This document shows, piece by piece, positions 1 through 64,000 of a stretch of DNA of 64,000 nucleotides; within the stretch, counting starts at the first letter, position 1; every line of letters begins with the position of its first letter. Source of the stretch: Agrocybe praecox (Eukaryota > Basidiomycota > Agaricomycetes > Agaricales > Agrocybaceae). A program made the position numbers and the translations under genes. Location: contig OZ024844.1 of assembly GCA_964017145.1 (NCBI GenBank), positions 1 to 64,000 of the forward strand, in the 5' to 3' direction. Below the pieces are notes generated by a model, which was given only the letters and a program-made list of their open reading frames with translations, had not been told where the DNA came from and searched no databases.

Positions 1-224
1 AATAAAAAACTGTGCTACTAGATACGACTGATTCCCTGATCCCGTAAGAACTCAGAAGGCGTCGGCGGTGGTCGAATGTGTGGTATAATAAAAACTGTAG
101 AACGACTTCAGATTGATTCGGATCGATCTCGAGTACGCGCGACGTGTCTAAATTACTCGGCATTAAACCCCTTGTGATATTCACCCATTGCATAGACTAT
201 GTAGCCGCTTGGTAGCCGATTTAA
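1..224. other. flank left of the composite transposon
   Basis: No gene, RNA or repeat was recognised here. The last seven bases (218-224, GATTTAA) are repeated at 12398-12404 just outside the other end of the transposon, so this is probably host DNA at the insertion site. Confidence 0.5.
218..224. repeat. left copy of candidate target-site duplication
   Basis: GATTTAA lies immediately outside the left terminus and matches 12398-12404 exactly. An eighth base differs in either direction (C217 against G12397, or C225 against T12405), which would fit an 8-bp duplication with one later change. Confidence 0.55.
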
Positions 225-304
225 CAGCCAGTGCAGACAGAATTATACATCAACCTTGGGTAGTTGCCCAATACAAGTGATGCATCCACAGCGGAAATGG
301 CCCC
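225..304. repeat. left terminal inverted repeat of the KDZ element
   Basis: It pairs with 12318-12397. The core begins GGTAGTTGCCCAATA at 259 and includes TGATGCATCCA and CGGAAATGGCCC. A second, diverged copy of the core (TTGCCCAA, TGATGCATC, CGGAAA) follows in direct orientation at 306-333, so the end has a sub-terminal repeat that could be a second transposase binding site. Confidence 0.7.
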
Positions 305-584
305 GTTGCCCAAATTGATGCATCACGGAAACGGGTGCTACATTACCGAATGCAGTTTGAAGTTCCGCATACAGCCGGATATCCGGCTGCGATATATTTA
401 TATATAGTGTCATCTATTTTTGTTGTTTCGGTATTTTTATTACTGCTACGTCACCGCAGGTATGATATCATAGAAGCTACAATTTATTTATTTTTATGTT
501 GCACACATATCAAAATTACAGATGAGATAAGATTTATAACACATAGATAAGGGTCAGGTGAGAGAAAGCGAAAATACACAAAAG
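305..584. other. left sub-terminal region of the KDZ element, non-coding
   Basis: It begins with the diverged copy of the terminal core at 306-333 and then a short palindrome, CCGGATATCCGG, at about 374-385. The rest is AT-rich and holds the 3' flank of the transposase gene, whose stop is at 585. No credible gene is present. Confidence 0.5.
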
Positions 585-3500
585 CTACATAAAGACGTCA
601 TCAATTGGCGGTGGGTGATTTCGAACAGGAGAAACCTCATTGCCATCGTCCTCATCACCGTCCTCATCACTATCAGTTTCGGCCTGGATGTCATCGTTGC
701 AACCGTGAAGGACATCCAATTCATCAATTTTACGAAGAGGAATTCGCCAGATATGTTGAAAGGTGACAGATAGGAGGCGCTGTATCCCTGCCTGTCGTTC
801 GGCGTATGCTCGCAATCCCTCTTGTAATTCCATATTAACTTCACGCGCCTGAGCTCTGAGATCCCACCACTCAGCCTTCCACCTCAGAAATTCAATGACC
901 CTCCGCATCTCCTCCCTCAACATTTTGACCTCCTCTTCACAACGTCGAACCCGAGCTCTACTCCTAGCCCATTCCGCACGGCACATGTCATCCTCTTCCC
1001 GTCCGTCTCTCTCATCGGTGTCTGTGCTGGTTTCTACACCCATCGACTCATCGCTGGCTACAGGTGGTGTAACACCGAAAACACCATCCTTTGGACGAAT
1101 GTCCATCCATATCCAGGAGACTTTCTGCCTGGTTTTCCCGGTACCTTCGCGTCGAGTTCGATCAGCTGGAAAAACCTCGATCTCGCCTTCAATTTCGTGG
1201 CCATTCACATCCACATCTTCTCCAGAAATCCCGCTACCAACTTCTCTCAAAGCCTGTTGCTCGGGCACTTGCCCATCCTCCCAAATACCCCGTCTTCCGC
1301 TAGTGGTCTTCTTGCTCTCGGGGTCTGTGTAGCTACGAACGTCAGAATTAAGCAGTGGTAGAAGGGTCTCCTCCCATGCTCCTGGGCCAGAAAGACAAAG
1401 TTTGGCAGTTCGAGCAGCTCTGTATTTGTCAACTGCTGCCAAAGCACGGCCGTGGACCTTGTCGATGAGTGAGCGAGACCTCGTACTCTGGTGTTGACCC
1501 CTGATATTTCTATACTTGAAATAGATCATCCTAGTTTTAACACGAAGCGAACGACGCAGTGCATTCAGGGCATCGAAGCACTGTGCTATTCGAAGCCTGG
1601 CCTCAAATTCTGGGAGACCTTGGACGCAGGCGGTGGATCTGTGATCTTCAGGGATGTTCGATGGAAGCCAAAGATTAACATCTTCTGGTCTTGGGCAGTC
1701 GTCCCAATTAATTGGGCCTTCATGATCTGGGTGGAGTTGGAGTTGAAGTACGCCGGGAATATACACCACTCGAACGAGCTCCCATGCTTGAATTTTGGTG
1801 GCAAGGACTCTACGCTGATCTTGCAATGACCCATCATCTATGTTATGAGGTACGTTCCCTCGTTCATTAACTGTTTTACGCAGCCGTCGTCTGATTTGAC
1901 AACGAGGACTATGAGTACGTGGTTCCGGCATTCAATATCTGTACTTACTGAGTGTCCTCGAGTTCTAAACCCATTAGCAAAAATTCCGATGGCCCCATAC
2001 TGTGGAGCCTAGCCTGACCCTCTGTAAACTTCTCTTTTTCTTCCCTTGATAATTCCTCTTTGACTTGAGCCTCTGTAATTTCTGCCCTGGATTTAATAAT
2101 ACGAATCATTTGAAACGAGAGTACTTACTTGCGCCTTCTATTTCATAAGGATTGGGACAATTTTTTGGGTATGGCGCATTGTTCCACGTCTCGCACATCC
2201 ACTCCCATTTTGCGATTGTGCTTTCTGAGATTGCATTCGTAAATCCTTGGTGGGCTTCTTTTTGTCGGTTCCTCTCACTGATCGCGGATTTGTATTTCCG
2301 AATAAGTGTGATACCTAATTAGGACGTCAGGAAATGTCTGTATATTATCTGGAAGATGCGTACCCATTGTACAGTACTTCTTCCAATTCCAGAAGCCAAA
2401 TTGATCATCCAGGACGTCGTGTCGAGAGCCAGGACTCAGAGTTGATGTCGATCCGCCGAGTCCGTTATTCCCAGACCAGCCTCTTTCTGGGACTTCTCCA
2501 TCCGTCAGACCCATGCCTTCGACGAGGTTGAACGAATATTGCTGGTGGTCTTTATCGTTGTGCGCAGGTTCGTGAAATTTTGGGATTAGGGGTTGAAGCC
2601 TGACTTGCGGATCGACTCGAAGGTCCTCTGGCCAATGTTCTTTCATCCGTTGACCGAGATTCTTGAACCACTGGCAAGCGATGTCATAACTAATGACGAT
2701 TGAAGTGGCTTTCATGTTTCGAATGGCAGAGGCAAATATATAGTCCATGTTAGCGTATCTTGTGCGTGAAAGTAAGTGCGTGTTAAGTGGAAAAGGACAG
2801 CTCCACGTACCTTTCACCTTTCTGCAGGTTACCAACCCCGTTCGGTAAGAACATTTCACCTCGACCACAGAATGTGCCTCCTACACCCGTGTACCGTAGT
2901 CCACGACTAAACCTGGTAAGGGCTTGAGCCAATGCTTGAAATCCAACGCAAGTACTAATCTGAAAATCATGTTAGTGTCAAACGAGAAAATTCGTCACGA
3001 AGAACCTACATCCTCATCATCGGCACGGCTAAGTACATAGTCCTCGTAGCCCTCTCTGCGAATCATATACGCCAATCCGGTACCCAGCCCAGGATCCGCC
3101 GAATAATTTGAAACCAGCCGATTCTTTAGCCGAAAGTTCGCGTCCATACACACAATAGGCTGGTATAAAAATCTGAAATGTCATGAATAAAATTATATGA
3201 AACACCAGTTATGATACTTACTGCTTGTCCGGGGGTGCGTCCTTCCAGTCGGCAGGAATATTTATACCTTCATGAGGGCATGTAGGACACATAACTGCGA
3301 GTTCGCCATCCTTTGTGCCTTCTATTCCTGCGGCGTCGTGACCTCTTCCTCCTCTTTTCAACAACTTAAGATGCCTCCACTGCAGTATGACCCTCATGAG
3401 AGACCGGTATCGTGAACTTGTCGGTTTTGCGGCCACGTTATTCGACAAACGTTCGAGCGTGTCATAAACATCGTACACGGAAGTTTTCGCACAGAGGGAT

Positions 3501-4457
3501 AACAAGTGGAGAAGCTTGAGGAGAGAAAAAGTGAAACAAGTCTGCACCACCCTCTGTGAAGCAGGGTAAAGACCGCGTCTGAGAAGTTGGATATGCTGTG
3601 GTATTGCGCGGTTGCACCCACAGTAGCTGAGGGAAATTTCGTGAACGCCGTTCGTATGTATGACTCTGAGATCCTTGTGGCACTTGATAGGCAGTGGACA
3701 CTTCATGCTGGCGTGGTTTAGATGGATGCTGAGCCCCAGTGATTTAAGGGAGACCTTCACAAATGTTGAATCCACCCAATGCTGTTAAATAGTCAATAAA
3801 TTTGCAATAAATAATATATATAGAAATAATCATGCTCTTACCTCGATAATATGATATGGATGTTGTCGATGGCGCTTCACACAACATTCCTGACAGACGA
3901 GATCTGGAGTGAAGCAGTCCTGGCATCTATATTCAGCATCGTTTGGAATATCTTTCCGGCGAGCGAGGCAGTCTGGGCACTGGGTATCCCTGATAAAATC
4001 GCCTCTCCCATCTCGGCGAATCTCCTCGTCCAAGTATTCCGACCGGTGCTGATCTTTCCATACTACGTGTGGGCGCATCTAGAATTTTTTGTAAAATTAA
4101 CAGGTGAGTACGTTCAAATTATCTGGAGGAACATACCGAAACTTTGCTCTTGACCCTTTTCTTTTTAGGAACTTTCTGAGCCTGGCTGAACTTGCTATCA
4201 CATACGTCCGTGCTCACTTCTTCATCGTACCAGTCTCCCGATTCATCCAAGGAAAGTTCTTCGTCATCCTCTGGTGCCCAGGCCGTTCCAACCGTCCATG
4301 TCGTTCGGCCTTTCAATGGAGAACGAGCACTTTCAAGAGGAATATTACGGCTACTAGTCCTTAGTGAACGCGCTTGCAGAACTTCGTAATCGTCTTCGAG
4401 AGGGATTCGATCGTGATAAGCAGTGGGTTTGAGGCGTTTAATTCTTTGCGTTGTCAT
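585..4457 (-). CDS. KDZ transposase with CxC2-type cysteine cluster
   Basis: Predicted DNA transposase that would cut and join the ends of the surrounding element. Nine exons splice to about 1152 codons without a stop: 4457-4137, 4078-3842, 3781-3222, 3172-3010, 2959-2811, 2758-2364, 2314-2125, 2086-1949 and 1890-585. The N-terminus is basic (PKKKRVK near residue 100). Residues ~141-165 hold a zinc-type cluster (CPDC, CQDC, CQECC) as in CxC2 proteins. The catalytic RNase H-fold core shows MDANFRLK (Asp about 383), SYDIACQW (Asp about 502) and GEVPERGW (Glu about 565 or 568), the expected D-D-E series. The C-terminal third is charged and coiled-coil-like (about 990-1080) and ends in an acidic stretch. 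The start at 4457 is the first ATG with good sequence after it. The exon 7 donor (GTACTC) is chosen because the nearby GTAAGT would break the frame. No disabling mutation was seen, so it may be active. Confidence 0.88.
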
Positions 4458-4555
4458 CAACAGTGCCAAGGTACGTAAGGGTAGGGGTTTCAGTAGGTCA
4501 GGGTAAAGGGTTGGAAAGGTTTCGTGGGTTTTTTGAAGGTTCAACGGGTCACTGG

Positions 4556-4660
4556 GTTTTAAGTAAAAATATATAGTAGGTAGGAATATACATGAAACTA
4601 TGGAACCCACAGAGTTTTAAGCAAAATATATATAGTAGGAATATACATGAAACTATGGAA
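4556..4660. repeat. direct duplication just upstream of the transposase start
   Basis: Two copies of a ~46-bp AT-rich segment (about 4556-4605 and 4614-4660) share TTTTAAG, ATATATAGTAGG and AATATACATGAAACTATGGAA in order. They lie 100-200 bp upstream of the transposase ATG and contain TATA-like tracts, so they may be part of its promoter. Confidence 0.6.
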
Positions 4661-4667
4661 TGATAGC

Positions 4668-5417
4668 CCACCTCCTGCTCGCTGCATGAGAGGGAGGTGG
4701 ACGAGACAAGGATAACGTCAAAAAGTAATTAACGATCTACCCTGGCCACTCTTGGATGCGAGGGAGGTGGAGGAGGTGCGAACGGTGTCGAAATAACCTC
4801 CAGCTTGCCCTAACAGCGTCGCAACGCGACAGAACCACCTCCGACTCGCACTTGCATGCGAGGGAGGTGGAAGATGTGCACGCGCGGGAGGTGGAGATCG
4901 CACAAACGGCGTCGAAACGCGACAGAACCACCTCCGACTCGCATTTGCATGCGAGGGAGGTGGAAGATGTGCACGCGCGGGAGGTGGAGATCGCACAAAC
5001 GGCGTCGAAACGCGACAGAACCACCTCCGACTCGCATTTGCATGCGAGGGAGGTGGAAGACGTGCACGCGCGGGAGGTGGAGGACGCACAAACGGCGTCG
5101 AAACCAACGCGACAGAACCACCGACTCGCATTTGCATGTGAGGGAGGGAGGACGCACAAACGGTGTCGACAGAATCACCTCCGGCTCGCTTTTGCACGCG
5201 AGGGAGGTGGAGGACGCACAAACGGCGTCGACAGAATCACCTCCGGCTCGCTTTTGCACGCGAGGGAGGTGGAGGACGCACAAACATTGTCGAAAGGCCA
5301 CGAAACCACCTCCAGCTTGCTTTTGCATGCGAGGGAGGTGGAGGACACACGAACGGAATCTAAACGCGGTAAAAATCCACCTCCGGCTCGCTTTTGTACG
5401 CGAGGGAGGTGAATGTG
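4668..5417. repeat. minisatellite of hairpin-forming units between transposase and dioxygenase genes
   Basis: About nine tandem units. The first have a 93-94-bp period (unit marks GCGAGGGAGG at 4858, 4951, 5044, then about 5138); later ones shorten to 60-71 bp (5198, 5260, 5329, 5400). Each unit joins CCACCTCC, CTCGCAT-type sequence, a short loop, ATGCGAG and GGAGGTGG, so each can fold into a near-perfect stem of about 15 bp. A related diverged unit lies at 4674-4706. The array is rich in CpG. Long reading frames through it on both strands exist only because 93 is divisible by three. It sits in the shared upstream region of the two divergent genes. Confidence 0.8.
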
Positions 5418-6203
5418 GAGGTACGGCGTGAGCCTGTGTCGCGTTGTGCGGTGTACAGAGTGTGTGAGAGGGCGGTGCATGTCCTAACCTGTTTCAATGT
5501 TAGTAGGCAGCAGGGAAGGTAGGTAAAGAGAGGCGAACCGATTATGGTTCGCCTCCTTGCGTACCTCGCGGGTCTCCCACACCATGGGTCTCCCCTCGTG
5601 TTTACTACCTGCCCCCAACCCACAAACCTTCCCGAAATGCATCGACATTGACGTGTTGAGTGGCCTACATCCCTCGCTGGAGAGGAGAGGCCCGGGTGGA
5701 AGCGAGTTCGGGTGTGGAGGGACCTAAGGAAAACGAATAAGGTCAGAAAACATATATCAAGATGGGTATAAACGAATTACTTACCGTTTAGCATGTCCTA
5801 CCGTGTTCGTTGAGTCCAGAGAGATGATGCAGAGGGTTGAAAGCCATGTTGGGTCACGCGGTCACGGTTGAACGTGAACGTTCAACGTTGATCGATGATC
5901 TATGACGTCACCTGCACAGCCATAGTTGAACTTGAACTTGATTGATTTTTCAACTTCCAATTAGCAACGCAAAGACGGTACGTTGACCTGTTTTCTTGTT
6001 TTATTCTTCTTCTCGCAACCGCGGTATGAGTTCTTGACGCCCCGGGGACATTTATCGCGGTTTGCTAAGTTTTGTGTTTCGCAATTTGAGTTCTTACGCC
6101 CTGGGGACATTAATCGCTGCACAATGCTTTTGTTCGCTTTCTTTTGTTCGTTTTTCTCGCTTCCTCAAAGTCTCGTTGACACGCACTCCCTTTACAGATA
6201 AAA
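5418..6203. promoter_or_regulatory. upstream region of the TET/JBP gene
   Basis: Non-coding gap of about 0.8 kb. It contains a CRE-like palindrome, TGACGTCA, at 5903-5910. It also holds two direct ~30-bp repeats at about 6027-6057 and 6088-6117 (GAGTTCTT, ACGCC, GGGGACATT, ATCGC in order), 90-180 bp before the dioxygenase start. The pyrimidine-rich stretch 6125-6180 resembles a basidiomycete 5' leader. Any regulatory role is inferred. Confidence 0.35.
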
Positions 6204-7756
6204 ATGGACAGCCCCGTGCCCTCGACTCTTGACTTGGAGAATGCAATATTTTCTCACGACACAACCTTTTCTTTTATGGACAGCCTTCTCCAGAGTATGG
6301 CAAACGAAACAACTCTTGGAATGCTTGATCTAGCACCTACGGACGCGGCGACGCCGGATGTCGCTCAGCTGGAATACGATATCTATTTTGGTACATTAAC
6401 TCCAACTTCTTCACCTCCAAGCTCCCCGAATCGCTCGAGGTCGGCATCGCCAATACGTCCTGGCAATGTAGATTCGACTCCTGGGACCTCAACCCTTAGC
6501 AAAAAAGCTCGCAGGGACAGGGAAAAAAGACACGAACGTCGTCGACTTAAGCGCAAGGCCAAACGACAAGCAGGACTAGAAGACCCCGACGGCCACAATC
6601 CCGTCCATCCAACTCTGATAAGAAATCACATCGAGAAATCAGCAGCTATTGAAACATCTTTTGACACATCGACCATACCTACGTGCTCAACAGGATTTAC
6701 GTCCAAACGTGAAAAAGAAGGGGAAGTATACGATGCCGATTATCTTGTCAACAAGGAAGGATTCAAGCTTGTCGAGTGGGACGGGAGGTGGGTATATTTC
6801 GCTTTGTGATTTTGCGGTGATATTTACCCACACTTTAGGACATCTCATCCCGTACTAGACCGCGATAGGAGGGTCGTTGGCGCTCTGGTTGGCAGCCCGA
6901 AGGATTCTGACTGGGATATTGTTACTCGAGGCGCATTCGAAGCTATGTGGCAGTCTGCAATACGGTGTCGCTTTACCAAGAAATCATGCCAAAACCGAAG
7001 AGGAGATTTTCCTTCGCTGGGTGTAGGCATTTCACATGGAGGCGGCCAAGAGGTAAGCAATCGTCTCTACATATAACTAGTACTAGTATCTGATCTCACA
7101 AAATTCGTATCTAGAAACCAGGAAACTTGCGTAACAGTAGGGTCAACGAGAAGGAGTTAAGGAAACTTTTACAGAATAAGCACATTCGGCGCATTTCTGG
7201 CCACTCAAACAAAGCCTTCGCAACATGGGGACCTAAACTATTCAAGTACTATCTGGACAACTTCCACGATCTTCTTCGAAATGATCCAAACCTCATTCGA
7301 AATTTCTCGGATAGCATATGGGCCGCCACAACCTTCAATTTTGGACCTCGTACAGTTACACGGCGCCACTTGGACTACGGGAATCTGCCTTTTGGGTGGT
7401 GCGCAATCACTCCTCTGGGCGATTTTGATCCTAAGAAAGGTGCACATCTGGTGCTTTGGGCCCTCAAATTGGTCGTGGAATTTCCAGCTGGGTCAACTAT
7501 ACTGGTTTCTTCTGCAGCCGTTGCCCACTCAAATACTCCAATATCCCAACATGAAACAAGGTATTCCTTCACCCAATATTCTGCCGGAGGGACGTTTCGA
7601 TGGGTCGCATATAACTACCAAAAGGCTGAAGAGTATCTCAATGGGTTAGAGGAGGAATCTCTCGAAGAAGAAATGAAGAAGCGTATGGAGAGATGCAGGC
7701 TTGGGTTATCCTTATATTCTACTATCAATGAGTTGACAGCTGGGCTGAAAAAGTAG
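6204..7756 (+). CDS. TET/JBP-family 2-oxoglutarate/Fe(II) dioxygenase
   Basis: Predicted to oxidise a methylated base in DNA (5-methylcytosine in the characterised fungal and animal members), using Fe(II), oxygen and 2-oxoglutarate in the nucleus. Three exons (6204-6787, 6839-7052, 7115-7756) give 479 codons. Residues ~1-90 are low-complexity and Ser/Pro-rich. Residues ~92-116 are a strongly basic segment (KKARRDREKRHERRR), likely for nuclear import or DNA contact. The C-terminal half is the catalytic domain. HLD at about 351-353 gives the first two iron ligands, His about 404 in AHSNTP gives the third, and Arg about 415 in ETRYSF is the expected 2-oxoglutarate-binding residue. The tail SAGGTFRWV is typical of agaric members. 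All key residues are present. It is divergent from the transposase gene inside the same element. Substrate is inferred from family. Confidence 0.85.
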
Positions 7757-8303
7757 AATAGGATAGATAGGGATAGATAGTCATTGTAGGGGTGATATAC
7801 ATATCATTTATTTTGAATGTGAGTGCAACTTACAGATGTGGATGTATCGGTATATTCCTGGGATGCATGAGGGGGGTCCTAATAGGTGTGGATTGACTTC
7901 CGTCAGTACCGAGCTTCTGGTGCTGTGAATACATCATTGGATCGGATACGATTTCGAGGGAACAGTATTGCGGTAGCGAACCCTGTGATAGCAATCCCAC
8001 CTATCGCGTATGACCAGACAATTTTTTGAAAAGGTTTGGGTACTACGCTACTCACGCGGTCTGTGTTACAGTACTAATTACTATAGCCGAAGTCGCCGTG
8101 ATTGTTGTAGGCGAGCATTGATGTCTCAGATTTGGAGCTCATTCAGTCTGGCTGAGGTACAGTGCAACAAGTATTTATTAAGAATCTAATATAGGGTATA
8201 GGGGTATTATATGATAACAAGAAAGCAGCGGCGAAGTCCTAGTTCCAAGAAGTGACGTTGGGGCACCATGATCGCATAAATGTGTTCATGCCCGGGCTAG
8301 TCC
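7757..8303. other. gap between convergent 3' ends
   Basis: Non-coding DNA between the ends of the dioxygenase gene and the small basic protein gene. No repeat or RNA gene recognised; it presumably holds both 3' untranslated regions. Confidence 0.5.
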
Positions 8304-9084
8304 TTACATGGCAATGTCAGGGCTCTGAAGAGTATCAGCAGCGTTTTCAACCTGAATGTTGGAGCTCTCGTCATCGGAGTTGCCTTCGGTGGCCAGGAGG
8401 GGAGTGATAGAAAGGGATTTAGCCTTTTTGTGGATGGTTGCATGGCTTGCTCGAGTGCGTTTGCGTTTGGTGGTTGCCGAGGCAGTTGGAGGTGGTGGTG
8501 CAGACTCGTCGTCGGCGTCGTTTTCGTGATCGGGATCGTGATCGAAGGTGATAGGCCATTGACGATGACCGCCAGCTTCCAATTCAGCCACCAGCTTATT
8601 CAAAGCGCGCTGGAGGATCGGAATGAGAGTGGAATGCGCAACGTTGGGAACATTGGGGATAATGAGGTGCACGCCAATGGAAGACGCGACAATGGTGTTG
8701 CTAAAAGAAAAGGTGATATAAGCAGTGAATTGAAAAGAATATATGTAAATGGACTTACTCGCTTCTGGGAATAAGAGCAGCAGGGAGTGTAATATGCTGC
8801 AAAATCTTCACACCGTGGCTCTTGACTGTTGTTTCGAACCGGTAAGGACCTAAGAATATCATTTAGCTACAGTAAAATGATAAATGAAAGAAATGTGAGA
8901 GGGTACGAACCGGCAAGTTCACCGGCCTCAAGCTGACGGCTCGTCTCGGTCTTCCCAGACTGGGAGAAGACAACAATGGTATCTAGTACGACGTTAGCCA
9001 GACGATACCAAAGAACTGTATGTAGAACTAACCTGGGACACCGGAAGAAACACGAGTTCCAACGCGGGCAGAGGTCGGTTGCAT
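8304..9084 (-). CDS. small basic protein of unknown function, transposon cargo
   Basis: Four exons (9084-9033, 8982-8911, 8849-8759, 8700-8304) splice to 203 codons with canonical GT-AG sites and an ATG start; the frame is kept across all three introns. The N-terminal ~130 residues look like a small globular domain with hydrophobic strands (DTIVVFSQSGKTET, VHLIIPNVPN). The remainder is acidic (DHDPDHENDADDE), then proline-rich, then basic (TTKRKRTRAS, IHKKAKS), which could direct it to the nucleus. I do not recognise a family. It lies tail-to-tail with the dioxygenase gene and head-to-head with the HMG-box-like gene, so it may share a promoter with the latter. A structural or DNA-binding role would be a guess. 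Confidence 0.6.
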
Positions 9085-9594
9085 GTTAAACGAGTGTGGT
9101 TGAAAAAGTGGGAAACGAGTGGTGGTGATTGAGAAAAGTAGAGGAGCTACATGACAGTGCTATAGCTGCTCTCCTTTTATACGGTTGGGGCTTTGATAAT
9201 ATCAGGGTTTGGGTTCGAGATTTGCGAGGGTTATGCACATCCGATATCGTGGTTGTGGACGTTGTGGACAAAGAAACTAATGTGACATGTCACGAAAACC
9301 AAACCAGAAATGGCAACTTCACCGCTATGCGAGAATGGAATACATTACGTTGACGCTTAACGATAACCAGTCTAACCTCGTATGAATTATTCTGTGCGCT
9401 TAACTGGTCAAGATACAAGATTTATTGTAAAATGAAACCAAAAGCTCAAAAATATAGGTACGCTACTCCATATTTGTGAAGTTTCAAATTTGCACGTTGT
9501 TCACTAACGTTTTCGCTTTTTTCTTAGTGTGCTACGTTGCATCTCATTTCCGACGTCTGTTCGCTTGCTTTTGCTCTTTGCTTGCTTATTCACT
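9085..9594. promoter_or_regulatory. shared upstream region of two divergent cargo genes
   Basis: Non-coding 510-bp gap between two divergent starts. It is AT-rich from about 9405, with a pyrimidine-rich leader before 9595. No specific binding site was recognised. An in-frame extension upstream of 9595 begins with GTG, so ATG 9595 is taken as the start. Confidence 0.35.
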
Positions 9595-11878
9595 ATGGTC
9601 AATCCCGGCTCCTTCACTGCGCTGAGGAAAGAATTTCTCGGGAATCAAATGGGGCTCTATGCTGAGGCAGTTGCCAATAATCACCTCGCCGACACCATTG
9701 CTGATATTCAGCGACGGTATTTCAAACGTTTCCCAATAACTCTGGACCATAATATCGAACCGAGTCCTGAATGGCTGGCTCAAGTTGACGATGATGCTCC
9801 AGATGACGAGCTCAAATCACCCGAAGATGGGACTATGGACACCGATAGCTACGTGGCTGCACTTGCCACATACGAGGATCAAGTAAAGTCACTCAAATTT
9901 CGCAAAGAGGTATGCCCGTTACTTTTTATCTTGCTCTACCCTTCATTATTAAAGTTCAATATATAGCAAATTCGTCGCCGACTTCAATACCAGTATCAGA
10001 AATCGAACCAGACACTGCAAAAAGCGGAAATTAATTCGACTGACCCTATGACGGTCCTCATGTCTCAGCTCACTGGCACTTCTTTGAAGAAGCCCCGCCT
10101 CAAGCCAGCATACAATTTCTGGGCTCAGCACAACCGTTCTATTGTCGACCCGATATTTGAACACCGTGTGAAGGAACACTCTATTCCTGTCAAGCAACAC
10201 GCGGCCTTGCGATGTCAAATATACAAGGAACACTTCAACAAGCTTGATGAAGACGAACGTCAACACTGGGAAGATCGAGCCAAAGGGGAGCATAAGGCTG
10301 CCCTTGTCAAATTCGAGGAAAATCACAAGCAGGACTCGCCATCCAACAAGGCTGAGGATCGACAGAGGTACATTTTATGTCAGATTCAATGTTTCAATAT
10401 CCACTATATCTAACGTTATACAGGGCTATACATGGCTTACCAACATTCGTGCAGCCCATTCTGGACCTTGTCGCTGCTCATACAGGATGGAAGGTTACAT
10501 TGATTGCAGGTGGCCCAGAACCTGCCGACCAAGGTAGATTAAACATGGTTAGGTGAGTTTACACCACTTTTGTTTTTTTTTTGTTTTTTTGTAGTTAATT
10601 AGCTCTATAACTAGTATTCACTCAGGCGAAACTCGCGGGAATGTCAAGATGAACTTCGGGAAGTCCGAAAGACGCGCATATAGGGAGTACATACTCCCTA
10701 TCTTTGGTAATTTCTTAAAAAAATGTTACAGTACGTTATTCATATTTATCTACGAATTACTGGTCTTAAACATAATTTCAGCTGTCGAAGAATGCCGCGC
10801 TTCCGTTCTGCCCAGCGGTTACGGCTCTCTTGCTCGAGCCTTGGCGGATGACGATGGCAGTAAATTCACCCTCGATTCTGCCGAGGACGCAAGCACTGTC
10901 AAGATTTTGAATCTCATGAAACCTCGGACAGTATCTGCAGAGTCAAATGCCAGCACATCAACGAGACCTGTAGTTGCTGAGGTACCGACTCCTGTGGCTA
11001 GCAGGGAAAATCTGTCTCCTGTGCCCTCTCCCCCTGTTTCTCGAGCCGCATCCATCAACGAGCTTTCAATGGCTGAGACCGAAGCCATCAATACCTCTCA
11101 ACCATTGTCTGACATTGCATCTCTCAAACGAAACATCGACGAATGTAACGCCGAAGTCGTAGACAACGAATCTCCTACCAAAAAGAAATCAAGACTTTCA
11201 CCCAGCCAAACTAGCATGGTGCACGACAAATCCCCAGATGTGCACTCTCCGCCACCCACTTGTTCACCAACTCGTACAATTTCTCATGACGTGGCTGCTG
11301 CCACAATTCCCTCGCGTTCAACATCGGTTTCCATACCTACCCTGATTCCTTTGATACCAGATGTTTCGTATGTGTCGGCGCCAGCTGGCGCACACACATG
11401 GTTTTCACACGCGTTGGAGGTCTTCCAATCCGAGCCCATGTGTTCTGAATGGTATCATTTACTTGGTGACTGGGCACGCTACCAGGATATCGCATCTAAT
11501 TACCAGGACAAAGGGAAGATCGGCTCCGAAAGACGCCCGGCATGCGTTGCACAATGGATCAAGCATGCGAGGAACTTGAGGCCGGAGATCACAAACCTGC
11601 GCAGCTTTCAGCGGGAGTTTAGAAACTGGTGGATCACACTACAACCTGAATGGAGGGTTCAGCGTAACTCAAGTGAGCTCAGGCGTGATATTGATGGCAA
11701 CCTGGACGTCTTCAAGAGACCGGGTAAGAATGGTTTGTATACTTTGATAGCGGCATTGTGGTTCTGGGGGGTGGCTGCTAAAGGAAAGAATTGCGGAGGC
11801 GGAGAAGTTGGATGGAAAAACGCTTTAGAGGATGTTTCTTGGGTGATAAATATATTGGGTACTGTATCATCTTCGTAA
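9595..11878 (+). CDS. HMG-box-like protein, transposon cargo
   Basis: Five exons (9595-9909, 9967-10367, 10424-10552, 10615-10730, 10782-11878) splice to 685 codons. Residues ~146-225 resemble an HMG box: KKPRLKPAYNFWAQHNR near its start, and a last helix with YKEHFNKLDEDERQHWEDRA. HMG boxes bend or bind DNA in the nucleus. A second conserved-looking block follows (about 245-320: ILDLVAAHTGWKVTLIAGGP, IHSGETRGNVKMNFGKSER). The middle is Ser/Pro-rich with a basic patch (PTKKKSRLSP), and the C-terminus has a Trp-rich folded region (about 530-670: WYHLLGDWARYQD, FRNWWITLQPEW). At exon 4 the acceptor at 10613-10614 keeps the frame, whereas the nearer CAG at 10622-10624 does not. As the last gene before the right inverted end it may assist transposition or chromatin targeting; that is inference. 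Confidence 0.7.
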
Positions 11879-12317
11879 GGGGTGAACTAAATTTTTCGAA
11901 TCAATTGTCAGCGATTTTTGAACAGTTTCTCTCTCATAGTAGTTATTTTATTGCTCATTTAATCTTAGCCCAACTTTGATAGTTCTTTAAACATACTGTA
12001 GCTTTTTTCTTTCTAATTATCATTCATATTCACGTGTGCAATCATAATATTCTCAATGAAGACGAAATCATAACAATGATCTAAATTTAGTGTAGATATG
12101 ATAACATCTGCTATCTTATCAATGTTTGATCATTTATGGGCTGTGCATCCATCAATGACAACATTTGCCGAGCAGTGCCGAGTTACAAATAGCCTGTGGC
12201 TATGTGTATTTTTAAAAATAGGTCGTTTGAGACATGCCACTCATGCCGAACGATGCCGCCATCATAATAATGACTGCCATTGTGAGGCTGCTTCAGTGAT
12301 ATATCAAATCTGGCGAG
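11879..12317. other. right sub-terminal region of the KDZ element, non-coding
   Basis: AT-rich sequence between the last cargo gene and the right inverted end. Short GC-containing motifs such as TGTGCATCCATCA and GCCGAGCAGTGCCGAG (about 12143-12180) recall pieces of the terminal sequence, but I could not align them reliably. Confidence 0.4.
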
Positions 12318-12397
12318 TGGGCCATTTCCGGCCTGGATGCATCAAGTATATTGGGCAACTACCACTTAATGATACATGCAGGTGTCAGTAGCTGGTG
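12318..12397. repeat. right terminal inverted repeat of the KDZ element
   Basis: Its reverse complement matches 225-304. The core 12318-12363 has 39 of 46 identities and the outer 34 bp are more diverged (15 of 34). It ends at GCTGGTG, followed at once by the 7-bp direct repeat. Confidence 0.7.
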
Positions 12398-12404
12398 GAT
12401 TTAA
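12398..12404. repeat. right copy of candidate target-site duplication
   Basis: GATTTAA, identical to 218-224, lies directly outside the right end of the element. Confidence 0.55.
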
Positions 12405-13090
12405 TTGGCCAAAGACAACCAACGGCATAGGCTAGTAGCGCTTGTGCCCAAAGCAAACCACTCAAAGGCCATGCCTTGTGTCGGGGAAGGATTGCAGTTA
12501 ATCGCGAGATAATGCGAGATGCTACCTGACCTTGTGCAGAACCCGCGACAGATAGCAGGTATAAGCTTGGCTGGTTATTGACCGGCCTCGGTGGTCCCTC
12601 TGCCCAAAGCCTTGAACGAACGCTAGCCCTTACTTCGGTTCGGGTAGTTAGTTGCTTTTAGCCGCAACAAACACTTGATTGATGCACGCATCTCGTCGTC
12701 GAGTCTAACATTATCCTAGTAACGCCCTTTGCGTTTAATAAATAAAACCCTAAGTTATTTAATTATATAACAAAAGGACGCACGTAATTGACTGGTTATC
12801 TTTATTGATTATAGCCTTAGCAAACTCCAGTCTGAACATAACAAGTTCGAGTTAAAGAACACTAATCTACCGGTAAAACGCTTACCTAACTCTAACTCTA
12901 ACGTACGTCGATTCCTTAATCGGAAATACAGTAGCTAACTACTTATCGAACGGTTCGGTAGCCTAACCTCTAACCCGAACCTAACCTAAGCATAGGTATA
13001 ATAATAGCGTCGAGTTGGCGCTATACTGCGGATTACATAAGCGCGTAACAAGCGCCCATCATTACGTAACCCCTTACCTTCCGCATTAGG
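12405..13090. other. non-coding sequence before the tandem repeat
   Basis: No reading frame of note. From about 12885 it contains diverged CTAACC-type runs (CTAACTCTAACTCTAAC, CCTAACCTCTAACCCGAACCTAACCTAAG) similar to the telomere-like tracts in the adjoining duplication. It may be the remains of the same repetitive element. Confidence 0.4.
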
Positions 13091-13828
13091 CCACTACGCT
13101 AAGTATTTATATCCATCGATCTACTTTGGTCGTTGTCGCTGGAACTGACAGCTTACTGATACTGCGGCGTTTCGCTGATTGATATCGTGCTTCTGGCCGA
13201 TCTTGGTCAGCGATCCCGCGGGATGTAAGACTTCACAGCTACTAATTGTTATAGAACATCGTAATCAGACTTACCGTTGAGATCGGTAAGCGCGATGGTT
13301 AACAGATCTAACCGATCTAGCTATCGAGAAATATAGGACCTGAAGAGCTATAAAAGCGAAAAGGTCGTGCAGTAGAATTCCCTACTACACCTTTGTCCTT
13401 TCTCACTCAGCACCTTCGTTCGGCCTACGGCCTCACTTCGGCGCTTCGTTCGAACAACCCTAACCCCTAACCCACTACGCTAAGTATTTATATCCATCGA
13501 TCTACTTTGGTCGTTGTCGCTGGAAATGACAGCTTACTGATACTGCGGCGTTTCGCTGATTGATATCGTGCTTCTGGCCGATTATTGGTCAGCGATCCCG
13601 CGGGATGTAAGACTTCACAGCTACTAATTGTTATAGAACATCGTAATCAGACTTACCAATGAGATCGGTAAGCGCGATGGTTAACAGATCTAACCGATCT
13701 AGCTATCGAGAAATATAGGACCTGAAGAGCTATAAAAGCGAAAAGGTCGTGCAGTAGAATTCCCTACTACACCTTCGTTCGGCCTACAGCCTCACTTCGG
13801 CGCTTCGTTCGAACAACCCTAACCCTAC
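13091..13828. repeat. two tandem copies of a ~360-380-bp non-coding unit with telomere-like ends
   Basis: Copy 1 starts at 13091 and copy 2 at 13472, both with CCACTACGCTAAGTATTTAT. They are nearly identical; the main difference is about 22 bp present near the end of copy 1 (about 13392-13414) and absent from copy 2. Each copy has a TATA-like GAGCTATAAAAGCG, two small hairpins (CTTACC/GGTAAG and GGTTA/TAACC) and an end rich in CCCTAA (CCCTAACCCCTAACCC in copy 1). No protein is encoded. It could be paired long terminal repeats without an interior, or a subtelomeric-type satellite. Confidence 0.7.
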
Positions 13829-14528
13829 TGAAATCAGAACAAGGAATGAAAAATAACAAACAATAACTAACAATCAGAATTGGTTTTAACACTCTTGGCT
13901 TCAATGAAGAGATGAGGGTTATTTGCTATGTAGTAATCCAAAAGATCAATTACAACTCAGGGCATTATACAAATAAAAAGGCTGACCTGCCATACTAGAG
14001 TGACAAGCAAAAAATATAATTTTTGTCCAATTTTCATCAAAAAAAAAAAATGATGGTGGTTTGAGTTCAAGAAAGAGTATTACAAATAACGAAGCAATCC
14101 CGTCTTAAATATCATGGACGATATAAGAATTACATAATCCGCTGACAGTGTTCAACCCGAAAATACACCACCAGAATATTTGCCACAATCTCAATGAGAA
14201 ACCCATATTTGTTAGTACAGAATGAGGCTACGTAATATTTTGGTTGATAGGCACATGCACGTATATATGTGGTGAGGGAGCGCAGAGTTAATGGATTAAC
14301 AAAACAGAAGGAAGCCATAGCGTACGTTGAACCCGAATCGACGCAGCCACTGGGAATTGCAAGAGTATCAGCAAGATTATGGAAAGAAGAGGACACAGGT
14401 GATTCGGCGGCTGAAAGCGATGCTGATGTTGATACCGAGGAAGTGGAGTATGTTGCGGATGCAACCGCGCTGCTCGTACGCGACGAAAAGCTGACACCAG
14501 CAAGGGCTGTATCGATGCCCGACAGAGA
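13829..14528. other. AT-rich non-coding stretch
   Basis: Contains poly-A tracts (for example about 14039-14050) and no supported gene. Short reading frames on both strands at 14269-14560 overlap each other, and neither is convincing. Confidence 0.35.
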
Positions 14529-58408: not shown

Positions 58409-61400
58409 ATGCCAGAAGCTGCAGGGGAATACGCCGACATTCCGGCGCTTTTGAAGGGTATCTTGAATGGGTACCCGGGAAATTCAGCAATTTTTCGAGA
58501 ATATTTGCAGAATAGTGACGACGCAGGGGCATCGTCTCAAGTGAGTGCCACAGCTGAGGATTTCTTCTTTGATGATATCTCTTGCCCCGGCTTAATTCAT
58601 GCCCGCAGATATTTATTCTCGACGAACGAACGTTCTCTCATAATTCGATTTTGGACCCAGTCCTCTCGGATAGCCAGGGGCCAGCATTGGTTTGCATCAA
58701 CAATGGTATATTAGAACAGGCAGATTGGAAGGCGTTACAGAGTATCCACTCTTCGAGTAAGGTTGCGGATGAAACGTGCGTTTTCTTTGTTTTACGTACT
58801 TTGATGAACTCGAACGAGGAAAACAAAGGCGAACAGGGAAGAACGGACTTGGCTTTCGTGCCTCCTATCATGTAAGTGACCTATTTATTATGTCCTAATC
58901 GCATTTATCAAATCTTTTGGACAGTTGACCGAAAATCCACATCTATTTTCTGGCCGAAAGCTGCTTGTTTTAGATGCACACCGCCATTTTCAGAAGCACC
59001 CTGGTGGCGTTTCAATCGATGTCATCGATGAAGGAGCGGAATATGAAGATCAAATGACTCCCTTTACCTCTCTAATTGATCACCCACGGGAATTTTTTTC
59101 TGGAACTCTTTTCAGACTACCCTTGCGAACCGAAGCCCAGGCCGAAAGGAGTCGGATCAAAGATACACCGACGTCTCCTGAAGAAATCCTGGAACTCTTA
59201 CGGGGTTTCTGCCAAACCGAATTAGAAGAAGTGATTCTATTTCTCAAACACGTTACAAATATCGAAGTATGTCATATCTCGAAAGAAGGCGTTAACAACT
59301 TGTTAGGTAGGGTTGTCGTGCAAAGACCACAACTCGAACCAATCCATGGGACATACCACTGTCGAATTAACTTGACTAGGCAGGATGGAGTAGAAACGAC
59401 TCGTGAATGGTGCTTCTATCACCTCTCAGTGGAAAAATCTGAGGCGAAGCGAATGCTGAGCTCTAGGCTTGGATATGACGTTGGGGACAAGTTGCTCATC
59501 GAGAAACTTACCCCCGTCGTTGACCTGGCTTTCCCCATAGACGGACCGACAATTAAATCAAAACTCTATACACTTCTCCCTCTACCAATCACCACAGACT
59601 TTCATATGCACATTAACGCAGTCTTCGCTTTAACTCCCGACCGTCAAAATCTGAAAAATGCGTTGGAAATTGGAGTCCAAAGATCTCGGGAAAGGTGAGT
59701 TGTTACTTGAACGAATACAACGTGATTAAACGATGCCTCGCAGACTTCTAGTCGAATGGAACAAGGTGCTGTTTACAGCATGGATTCCTATTGCCTGGGC
59801 GAGACTTCTGGCGGATTTAAGGAAGTCATTCGTAACGCATAACTCTGTCAACTCGTATTGGTCACTCTGGCCTCCCTTGGAACCGACGGGAAATACATAC
59901 TGGGGAGGCCTTTCGAAAGGTGTTCTCATTGAAATCATACGCTGCGCTATCCCTGCCTTTCCCATTTTCGGCGAAGCCCTTGTCGATATATTATATGTGT
60001 CGCTCAAGAATTCAAATATTCTCCTTGCGCCTCCCGACGCTCCGATCGATTTAAACATCCTATCGTCGCATGTTGATATCGTTCAACCTCCAGGTTATAT
60101 CTACGATATTCTGTATGAACTTCGTTCACAAATGACAGCTTCCTTTTTATCCCCGGATACTTTGTACCGCCGAATCCGAGAGGTTTACACCGCAGATCGG
60201 TTTCCTATTTGCACCCCCGAACATGCTCGAACAATTGTTGACTACCTTGCTCAAGTCAACACCGTCCCCACCCTTACTTTTATTCCCGGCATTCGTTTGT
60301 TCAGGCTTACAGATGGTTCTCATGTTTCCCTGGGCTCCGTATCAGCGAACTATATCGTACCTTCAAGCCAGAGGGAGGCCGAGCTATTCGGCTCACATAG
60401 GCTCATGTTAGATTGGAATTGTATGTCAGATCGATTCCGGAAATACGTTATAACGGCAGGGACCGCCAGTCGCCTCAATACCACAACTCTGAAAGTCGAG
60501 CATATCTTCGCTGTGTTGCACGCCAGTTTTAACTCCCTGAAGCCGCCTCTTCGTCAAATCAAAGTCGAAGATTTTGCCTGGTTGACCAATTTTTGGAATT
60601 GGATTGCCCACTGGCCCGATGTCAAGTCGTTTTTCAAGAAGGAGAAATCGGAGAAACTTGCCAATTTGTATTTGCTTCCGACGTCCGAAAGGAGTCTGCG
60701 CAAATTCTCTTCGAAGAGTTTTGTTTTTGGCGACACTGATCAAGCCGCGGTCGACGCATGGAACATGCTAGGTGTTTACCCCCTCCATAGCGATATTTCG
60801 AATGACGTTTCTCTAAAGATGAAGCCTGTCGTTGAACGTCCTCAAAGCACGGATTTTGTTCCCCTCCTACTTCGAACGTGCAACACATCCCTGCAGAAAA
60901 ATATCTCCCAGGATGCCCTGCTCGCCATTCAGAAATCTATATGTTTATGTCTTCCTTCTCGAGCAACGCCCTTCAAATTACCTCGAAACGAACGATTGAA
61001 ATTATGCGCGTTGAAGATCTTCGCAACGAGGTCGACCGACAATGAAGCTTGGTCACTTAACTCCCTTGAAGGAACGTCCGAATTCCGGTATCTCAACGTA
61101 ATGAATCAGTTTCTACTGCCAGTCGAACGTCATTCAGTGGTATACGTGAACATGCAAGATCCTAGCACTAGCCTCCTCGCTCGATTGGCGAACGAAACCC
61201 TTCCTAGGACTTACTCCGAAATCGACCTTGTGAAGATCGCCTTCGATAATTGGAATATTCAAGCACCCAACGTTCAAGACACTTACGTTGCATGGATATT
61301 TAGAAATCGGGCTTCCGTCTCTCACGACATCTTGCGACGCATGGATAACCTTGAGTTCGTTAAGGCCCATCGTACGGAACATAAAGTCAAGCCCGTCGGA

Positions 61401-64000
61401 CTTGTCAATCCAGGGTCAACTATAGCGAGTCTGTACACCGATGAACCAGGACGGTTACCCACAGATTTATTTGCCACGAAATACCTTCCAGTGATGCAGG
61501 ACCTTGGTTACCTACATTCTCATCTGGATGCCTTCGTCGTAGAAGAGCGCCTGAAATATCTGTCCTCAAACTCTTCTGACGTGTCTCGTGCACGGAAAGC
61601 TAAGGATTTTATCGCTTTATGTAACAGGGAATGGAAACCAGAATTCGAGCCTATGATTCAGGGCACGTGTGACCAGACTTGGATGCCCGTGGATGATTCG
61701 ACGTTTGAATCTCCTGCATTCTGTCGAGACTCCATTGGTACTCGTGGGACTCATGAAAACCCCTTCTTCTATGACCTGACGCTTAAAATTCTTCCTCTAG
61801 ATGTTCAAATTATCGCTCCCCCTTTCCGAAAAGCACTAGGATGGTCAGATGTGATCCCTTCCCAAATCCTTGTCACGCAATTTCGTCTCACTCTTCAGTT
61901 GGACGATAATCAAGAACAAAACTCTCGATTAATAGCCTTAATCGACTACTTTGGGTACCTAAACGACCAAGGTCGACTCTCTTTGGATACCGTGAAGGAC
62001 GTCAAGGATATGTTAACCGATAAAGCATGGATACCGGCCACCTCGTCTCGCGATGGAGGGCTGGTGAAGGCATCCTATGCCCTATTTTCCCACAATATCG
62101 ACCTCAAGCCACCCTTCCGGCAAGTCCACAACTTTGAATTGACGCCGTTCCTTGTGAAAACGGGGTGTACGCTAAGGTAAGGATCATGCATCGTCTTCTG
62201 CCCCATTTATTTACGTTGACGTTATATTAGGCCAACGCTTGAGGTTCTCGAAGAAGAATTACGTTCGCAAGAATATGTATGTGACCAAGACGTTGCAGCT
62301 TCGGTATCCATATTGCAGGAAATCGTCACATACCATCCTGATTTCGATCGCGCAACGTTATGCATCCCAGGAACTAATAACTCATCGATCCCACTCGAAA
62401 ACGCATTTTTCAAAGACACAAGGCTGACGAACTTCGCATCGAGTGCAACTGGATTGTTGCCAGCGCATGACATGATCTCCCGCGCATTGGCCGACAGTTT
62501 GCACATTCCATGCTCCAGTGCTCTCAACTTTGAAAGTTTTGCTGCCGACGACGAGGAGGCAGACGAAGATAACGACGCTCAAATGGGCGAAGATTTTGTG
62601 ACTCGTATTCGTGGATTCCTTCGTGAATACAATGTTAGGTATGCGTTGAATGAATTCCTTGCTAATGCGGATGACGCTGGAGCGACGAGGTTCTCGATTT
62701 TGGTGGATACGCCCACCGTCAATGGTGATGGATATCTTTCTCCTGAGTTGGAGTCCCTTATATCTTGCCCTTCATTGATTTTATACAATAATGCTTCTAT
62801 GAAAGAAGAAGACTTTGAAGGGCTCTTGAAAATCGGGAGAGGTGGGAAACATGGAACGTCAGAGACACATGGCCGTCATGGTCTCGGAGCTCTCAGTTTC
62901 TATTATTTTACCGACGTGCGTGGCTCACATTTCCGAATCTGCGTTAAATACTAAACTTTAGAGAATATAGGTGGTAACCGTGATATCAGGTGGACAAATT
63001 ATGTTCTTAGATCCATCAGGAATGTATTTACCACGACGACGGTATGAGAAAAGGACGGGATTGCGCAAGCCACTGGTGCAGTTTTCGCTGTGAGCATTCA
63101 CGAGAATCGTTGATAAATCACGATTATCTAGGATTAATTGGATGAATTATAGGCAATATCTTGACCAGTTAAAATCATATGATTCGATCTTTGGATTCTC
63201 CCCCTTTTCTTCAAACTACGAAGGGGTGAGTTTCTTGTCCTTTTTATTTCTTTCGCCGAATTACATCTAATCCGTCTAAATGTAATTTACTTGCAGACAT
63301 TGTTCATACTTCCGTTAAGGTCTTCCATAAGCGAGCAACCATGCGGGTTGGTCGAGACTCATGATTTATTGAAGACAACCTATCAAAGCCTCAGCGAAAA
63401 CGCGTTCTTCTTTACTCATTTGACGCGGATATCTGCAGAGGAGAAAAGGTCGTCCGAGAATGTGAAGTTGTGGTCAATGTCGGCATCACGAACGCTACCT
63501 GTAACGCTCAACGAAGACTTTATGCGCTCGGACCTGTCAATTGAACGAATCGAAGAAGATCGCCAACCTATAGTTCAGACTTGGCTTGTGGCAACTTCTC
63601 CCCGCGCTCAAATCCCAAACGAACATGAAGTCACGGCCAAGATGTTAAAATTGGATCCAGAATCAGTAATGAACGTTCAGATTGCGATTAGGACAGGTCT
63701 CAGGGACTATTCGGACTGCAAATCCTTCCTATTCTCTACTCTATCCCTGCCGAAGGTGGTTTCCTTGCCGTTCCACCTCAATTCTCGCTTTTCTATCTCC
63801 TCTAATCGACAGAGCGTTGTGCTTGATCCTCGAGACAGTGATCATCAAGTGGACGCCAAAACCGCTTACAATCTTTGGATATTGGAGTCGCTTGTTCCGC
63901 CGCTTTATCTCGCCGCCTTTGAATTTCTACTCCACACGTACAATCAAGAATATCATTTCTACAAGAGAAGGTGGTGGCTTTTGGACACTTCAGACGATAT
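58409..64000 (+). CDS. sacsin-like giant protein with repeated HSP90-type ATPase domains (5' part)
   Basis: In animals sacsin is a very large chaperone-related protein with repeated regions headed by HSP90-type (GHKL) ATPase folds; its fungal relatives are little studied. Nine exons in the window (58409-58540, 58609-58775, 58829-58871, 58925-59694, 59744-62176, 62231-62915, 62971-63089, 63153-63225, 63297-64000) give 1708 codons in one frame, still open at the right edge. ATPase copy 1: IFREYLQNSDDAGASSQIF with Asp about 37-38, QGPALVCINNG and TGKNGLGFRASYH. Copy 2 begins near residue 1300: ALNEFLANADDAGATRF, SLILYNNASM, then GRHGLGALSFYYFTD. Sequence after each copy is similar in layout (DPSG or DAHRHF, then FSGTLFRLPLR or EGTLFILPLR), so these are two internal repeats. 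Known sacsins exceed 4000 residues. Confidence 0.88.

What the first reader, a model, noticed from the sequence alone, without database searches (positions are those of the whole stretch)
225..12397. Complete-looking composite KDZ transposon with TET/JBP, HMG-box-like and unknown cargo genes
Equal-length inverted ends (39/46 identity in the core) and an exact 7-bp direct repeat right outside both ends enclose four spliced genes with no disabling change. KDZ-TET/JBP linkage is established knowledge. A mapped 12.2-kb unit that also carries an HMG-box-like protein and a small basic protein could be a self-contained system that moves and edits its own DNA methylation state.
Basis: partly seen in the sequence, partly recalled or inferred. 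Interest (0 to 1): 0.88.

Follow-up and report, generated by a model that had tools for sequence, protein, structure and literature searches.

The report
Freshly mobile fungal transposon carrying TET
A 12.2-kb DNA transposon in a probable mushroom genome is present as two letter-for-letter identical copies at different sites, so it likely jumped recently; beside its transposase gene it carries three more genes with predicted intact frames, one predicted to encode a TET enzyme that would oxidise methylated DNA, and close relatives in the same genome lack that gene, which makes its use to the transposon testable.

Summary
Window 225-12397 is a complete transposon: 12,173 bp, CA..TG termini, subterminal inverted repeats, exact 7-bp target duplication, four genes with intact predicted frames. 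A second copy on another contig is identical over all 12,173 bp with a different 7-bp duplication. The empty target is in the same genome: 40 of 40 scored matches of a subtelomeric repeat run through the joined flanks, and four of four fetched show a single GATTTAA.

It fits TET+ Kyakuja (KDZ) transposons, a known kind. New here: an orphan 203-aa protein (P3) at 11 loci of this genome; an ~858-bp non-autonomous family with related ends (7-bp duplications in 6 of 7 whole copies); a CpG-dense palindromic array found only in these two copies; and sister elements with similar ends but no TET. TET status is interleaved on the trees, so TET was lost or gained at least twice.

A TET- pair and a TET+ pair both differ mostly at CpG sites (93 of 128; 10 of 15), so carrying TET does not visibly stop CpG decay. 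Best reading: an autonomous Kyakuja whose TET is likely an optional anti-silencing module on a transposase/P3/HMG core.

The parts
218..224 (.). 7-bp target-site duplication GATTTAA, left
   Evidence: a single copy in 4 of 4 fetched empty sites
12398..12404 (.). 7-bp target-site duplication GATTTAA, right
225..12397 (+). whole transposon, CA..TG termini, 12,173 bp
   Evidence: identical second copy C9:1190891-1203063 with duplication GAGATGG
259..330 (+). subterminal inverted repeat, left arm (core 259-303)
   Evidence: left 60 bp match 13 places of the genome, this one included
12292..12363 (-). subterminal inverted repeat, right arm (core 12319-12363)
   Evidence: right 60 bp match 6 places, this one included
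585..4457 (-). KDZ transposase, 9 exons, 1152 aa
   Evidence: Pfam KDZ 5.7e-60, CxC2 1.5e-35
4660..5420 (.). CpG-dense palindromic tandem array (62-93-bp units; TRF rows 4812-5411) between the divergent transposase and TET starts; its unit was found only in the two identical copies
6204..7756 (+). TET/JBP-type dioxygenase, exons 6204-6787, 6839-7052, 7115-7756, 479 aa; H351-x-D353, H404, R415
   Evidence: fold of a relative matches CcTet
8304..9084 (-). P3, orphan 203-aa protein, 4 exons
9595..11878 (+). HMG-box-like protein, 5 exons, 685 aa, with a conserved GGPEPA-containing region
75..224 (+). left flank, subtelomeric repeat (target)
12405..12554 (+). right flank, subtelomeric repeat (target)

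Best explanation
This is a complete Kyakuja-type (KDZ) DNA transposon, present as two identical copies, that is predicted to cut and paste itself with its own transposase into 7-bp duplicated targets and that likely uses its TET-type enzyme as an optional means of weakening DNA-methylation silencing of its own genes. Shown: the unit, its ends, its duplications, the empty target, the identical second copy, four predicted frames without a stop, more silent than amino-acid-changing differences in all four genes against relatives, TET-less sister elements with similar ends. Inferred: the KDZ transposase cuts at the ends carrying the subterminal inverted repeats; TET oxidises 5-methylcytosine, most usefully in the divergent transposase/TET promoter region with its CpG-dense array; the HMG protein and P3 bind element DNA, as transposition cofactors or to guide TET. 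Because TET comes and goes while transposase, P3 and HMG stay together in this clade, the core is taken to be transposase + P3 + HMG and TET to be a module that could be supplied in trans by other copies. Rough odds by step: identity as a recently mobile TET+ Kyakuja-type element 0.95; cut-and-paste by its own transposase 0.9; TET acting on the element's own methylation 0.5; HMG or P3 guiding TET 0.2.
Against: A TET+ pair also decays at CpG (10 of 15 differences). A TET-less sister moved as well (C278, duplication CCTTGCT). The window TET hits no Tet_JBP model, and at the ungapped equivalents of CcTet Gly331 and Asp337, named in PMC12730594, it has Asn356 and Cys362. Between the close pair C17 and C278 the HMG gene shows pN/pS 0.74 on few changes, i.e. 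little constraint there. A majority vote among three TET- copies gave 33 CpG gains and 21 losses, opposite; two of the three are sisters, so I trust the outgroup more. No methylation, expression or activity data.
Confidence: 0.7

Rival explanations
1. TET is passing cargo with no self-directed role: it oxidises genome-wide 5mC or serves another purpose, and transposition needs only transposase, HMG and P3.
For: TET absent in 5 of the 9 P3-bearing loci that also have a transposase hit; interleaved on HMG and P3 trees; degenerate TET at C5:3009k and C10:2383k next to P3 and HMG; CpG decay in a TET+ pair. PMC12730594 itself speculates about untargeted oxidation in Agaricomycotina.
Against: TET is under purifying selection (pN/pS 0.30-0.31), 27 of 37 multi-gene clusters hold both TET and HMG, and TET is intact in the freshest copy.
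Confidence: 0.25
2. TET acts in transposition itself, for example by marking or opening the ends, not in transcriptional silencing.
For: Linkage to the transposase in a repeated gene order.
Against: A TET-less element with similar ends has a 7-bp duplication (C278), and the 858-bp derivatives, which moved, keep almost no CpG (4-16 conserved CpG bases per pair).
Confidence: 0.07
3. The two identical copies are a segmental duplication or assembly artefact, not transposition.
For: Zero differences over 12 kb; the window copy sits in a subtelomeric repeat, a hard region to assemble.
Against: Flanks differ directly outside the CA..TG ends, each copy has its own 7-bp duplication, and empty targets exist for the window copy, with a paralogous one for the C9 copy.
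Confidence: 0.02

Closest known systems
TET+ Kyakuja transposons of Agaricomycetes (Kojima 2025, PMC12730594; parts 1-5 of 7 read, plus a word search)
   Same: KDZ transposase, TET/JBP gene inside, 7-bp duplication, CA..TG termini
   Different: that paper reports no TIRs for its two Laccaria families, and a search of its main text finds no HMG; here there are subterminal inverted repeats, an HMG-like gene, the orphan P3, a palindromic array, TET-less sisters with similar ends and an 858-bp derivative family
KDZ-TET/JBP-HMG association (Iyer et al. 2014, PNAS; not held, contents recalled)
   Same: as I recall its abstract, KDZ elements with TET/JBP often carry a divergent HMG-domain gene
   Different: there, linkage of genes; here, a bounded unit with empty site and identical copy. 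Whether P3 is mentioned there I could not check
CcTet of Coprinopsis cinerea (PDB 8jkk, 7w5p, 7vpn)
   Different: about 17% identity; not found by a profile of this TET group at E <= 1
VANDAL/VANC anti-silencing transposons of Arabidopsis (PMC5735166; abstract and passages seen)
   Same: works like: element-coded protein against silencing, with tandem repeats that vary between related elements
   Different: VANC is a DNA-binding protein, not an oxidase; not a member

Membership tests
Kyakuja (KDZ) | KDZ transposase domain | tested here: met
   PF18758 E 5.7e-60, PF18803 CxC2 1.5e-35
Kyakuja (KDZ) | 7-bp target duplication (8 bp in Zisupton and Dileera, per PMC12730594) | tested here: met
   3 of 4 full-length copies, 6 of 7 whole 858-bp derivatives
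Kyakuja (KDZ) | 5'-CA..TG-3' termini | tested here: met
   CAGCCAGT...AGCTGGTG
Kyakuja (KDZ) | no TIRs (described for two Laccaria families, not taken as defining) | tested here: inconclusive
   outermost 34 bp outside the match, positions 35-79 from each end are 39/45 inverted identical
Kyakuja (KDZ) | transposase falls in the Kyakuja clade | not tested
   no named Kyakuja, Dileera or Zisupton reference sequences were at hand
TET/JBP dioxygenases | 2OG-Fe(II) fold closest to TET enzymes | tested here: met
   [not shown]
TET/JBP dioxygenases | HxD...H metal ligands and 2OG arginine | tested here: met
   H351, D353, H404 invariant and R415 nearly invariant in 23 aligned rows; window residues printed; the roles of these residues are recalled
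TET/JBP dioxygenases | Pfam Tet_JBP score | tested here: inconclusive
   window protein no hit; 5 of 23 aligned members hit at E <= 0.1, the best, P0121, with 28.6 bits, below the 34.9-bit cut-off
TET/JBP, AG type of PMC12730594 | Gly/Ser and Asp at the places of CcTet 331 and 337 | tested here: inconclusive
   Asn356 and Cys362 at the ungapped places; no residue-level structural alignment available
TET/JBP dioxygenases | oxidation of 5mC | not testable with these tools
   needs purified enzyme
HMG box | three-helix HMG fold | tested here: inconclusive
   [not shown]

The most novel reading that the evidence does not exclude
A self-targeting demethylation system in a transposon: element-coded DNA-binding proteins (HMG protein and the orphan P3) bring the element's own TET oxidase to a private CpG-dense palindromic array placed between the divergent transposase and TET genes, an enzymatic counterpart of Arabidopsis VANC, with the array free to diverge between sister elements so that each copy family frees only itself.
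Probability: 0.13. Interest if true: 0.86.

Novelty: new variant of a known kind. Interest (0 to 1): 0.56.

Why it matters
Whether transposon-borne TET genes help their own transposon is an open question (PMC12730594 says the function is not experimentally validated). This genome holds a natural experiment: one element, two identical TET+ copies with known empty sites, TET-less sister elements with similar ends, and short derivatives that report transposase activity. Methylation and transposition can be compared inside one strain. It also adds a conserved orphan gene family to one Kyakuja clade.

Tried and rejected
P3 identity: 297 candidates in the protein database, none at E <= 0.01; no Pfam match for 8 of 8 aligned members; no credible PDB match; 36 pattern matches in IMG/VR, none confirmed. 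Its fold was not predicted because the spliced protein is not readable as one stretch of DNA, which the tool requires. P3 in other TET+HMG loci: spliced alignment of three P3 domain versions in seven stretches of L061, L062, L057 and L025 scored at most 6 above the best of 3 shuffles each.

Literature: searches. A paper joining Kyakuja, HMG and TET was not found in this open library (0 papers), but Iyer 2014 is not in it. Passages only were seen of PMC8889193 (no KDZ, HMG or Kyakuja in its main text), PMC8290104 and PMC5735166.

Limits: counts from whole-genome searches are lower bounds (40 of 544 transposase, 65 of 305 HMG, 89 of 120 TET candidates scored). Only two near-identical pairs were compared for CpG changes outside the 858-bp family.

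Full report
What was checked. The window is the first 64 kb of contig C5 of a 59.17-Mb genome in 347 contigs. No name is given. The nearest relatives of the HMG-like protein are from Pholiota and Hypholoma, so a mushroom of that neighbourhood is likely.

The unit. The direct repeat GATTTAA flanks 225-12397 exactly. The ends begin CA and finish TG, and share a subterminal inverted repeat of which 45 positions are 39/45 identical. A 60-bp search with each end gave 13 left-end and 6 right-end places. Two of each are perfect: the window, and C9:1190891-1203063 in the other orientation. That copy has 0 differences in 12,173 bp and its own duplication GAGATGG. An exact 7-bp repeat at fixed ends has a chance of 6e-5 per element.

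Empty site. The joined flanks with one GATTTAA (300 bp) matched 40 places of 40 scored (46 candidates) over the whole 300 bp at 92-97% identity, many of them near contig ends. Four of four fetched read through GATTTAA once. So the window copy sits in a subtelomeric repeat and its empty target is known from paralogous copies; the allele of another strain was not available. For the C9 copy, only its own two flanks and one paralogous stretch at C2:3658591-3658761 matched; the latter (83%) has a single GAGATGG at the junction. That stretch lies in an HMG-gene match (C2:3658335-3659048), and another HMG match ends 211 bp before the C9 copy. The C9 copy has therefore likely landed in an older element's HMG gene; the direct protein test was weak (one of 63 relatives, E 0.004).

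P3. The fourth gene is a real protein family: 21 matches at 11 loci. Nine loci were rebuilt, none with a frameshift or stop, with two or three introns each; the other two are the C9 copy and a second C278 copy. Eight were aligned (53% mean column identity). Its conserved ~100 residues match no Pfam, PDB or protein-database entry credibly. In all 11 loci it clusters with HMG. pN/pS against the window is 0.38-0.59; for three closer pairs it is 0.18, 0.40 and 0.42.

Selection on the rest. Against the window, pN/pS is 0.18 for transposase, 0.30-0.31 for TET and 0.26-0.36 for HMG, with silent sites near saturation. Between the close TET- pair C17 and C278 the HMG value is 0.74 on few changes, so constraint may be relaxed there.

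TET is optional. Of the 11 P3 loci, 4 carry TET, 5 have transposase + P3 + HMG without TET, and 2 have P3 + HMG with no transposase hit. C278:21865-32298 (10,434 bp, duplication CCTTGCT on both sides) and C17:6542-17417 (10,876 bp, no matching duplication) have ends 80% (left) and 87% (right) identical to the window's. On the HMG and P3 trees, TET+ and TET- members fall in both of two supported clades: at least two gains or losses. In the other clade the TET genes at C5:3009k and C10:2383k lack a central stretch in the spliced alignment, and the first has two frameshifts. The two TET- elements are not perfect either: the C17 copy has one stop in HMG, and the spliced transposase alignments show one stop (C278) and one stop plus one frameshift (C17). 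Of the four elements read in full (C5, C9, C278, C17), only the first two are clean throughout. Genome-wide, 27 of 37 multi-gene clusters hold both TET and HMG, in at least three of them in another order (approximate).

Short derivatives. Eight left-end matches belong to a family of about 841-860 bp with both ends related to the 12.2-kb element. One is cut by an assembly gap; of the other seven, six have exact 7-bp duplications. Two pairs among them are 100% identical.

CpG decay. The TET- pair C278/C17 differs at 128 of 10,061 aligned bases. Of these, 117 are transitions and 93 are CpG-type: 0.091 per CpG base against 0.0039 elsewhere. With the window as outgroup, 43 are CpG losses, 15 gains and 35 unpolarised. 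A majority vote among C278, C17 and the C9:789k copy pointed the other way (33 gains, 21 losses), but the last two are sisters on the tree, so the outgroup is the better guide. This is what methylated CpG would give. The one TET+ pair that could be fetched (C2:385-389k and C11:1492-1497k) shows 15 differences in 4,689, 10 of them CpG-type (0.019 against 0.0012). The excess is of similar size, so the test gives no support for TET protecting its own copy. It is small, and that pair's TET was not tested for function. Overall CpG o/e does not separate the elements.

Array. Between the divergent transposase and TET starts lies a tandem array of 62-93-bp palindromic units (TRF rows 4812-5411), with 78 CpG in 761 bp, about twice the element's mean density. 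Part of it (4825-5120) folds far better as a single strand than shuffles (z -6.3, 0 of 200). All 14 matches of its unit are in the two identical copies, and no comparable array was found in the fetched parts L017 and L019 of the C278 and C17 elements. Arabidopsis VANC proteins act on tandem repeats that vary between related elements (PMC5735166, abstract and passages). This likeness is the basis of the novel case; nothing here shows binding.

Verdict. Ordinary in kind (a TET+ Kyakuja), unusual in completeness: a clean, freshly mobile unit, an orphan protein family, TET-less sisters, short derivatives and known empty targets in one genome.

Noticed in passing
C9:1189855-1190890 and C2:3658335-3659048: The identical C9 copy likely sits inside the HMG gene of an older related element; the matching empty stretch is at C2:3658591-3658761.
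   Followed up: partly
C6:866260, C6:637944, C2:1145704, C2:103748, C1:4708684, C10:928490, C9:610155, C12:1464151 (left ends): Non-autonomous ~858-bp family with related ends; 7-bp duplications in 6 of 7 whole copies, two identical pairs.
   Followed up: yes
window 75-224 and 12405-12554: Subtelomeric repeat present at 40 or more other places, many near contig ends.
   Followed up: partly
C12:2720989-2721459 and ten further places: A second TET group that matches Pfam Tet_JBP, at none of the places matched by this element's TET.
   Followed up: no
C278:8212-15342: A related element appears to be split in its transposase gene by about 7 kb of other DNA.
   Followed up: no
[not shown]
   Followed up: partly
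window 58880-59695: Open frame with a sacsin domain (PF25794, 1.9e-19), followed by an open frame 59730-62177 with no Pfam match at E <= 0.001.
   Followed up: no
window 13080-13830: Two near-identical ~350-bp direct repeats ending in TAACCC-like stretches, seen by eye, probably subtelomeric.
   Followed up: no
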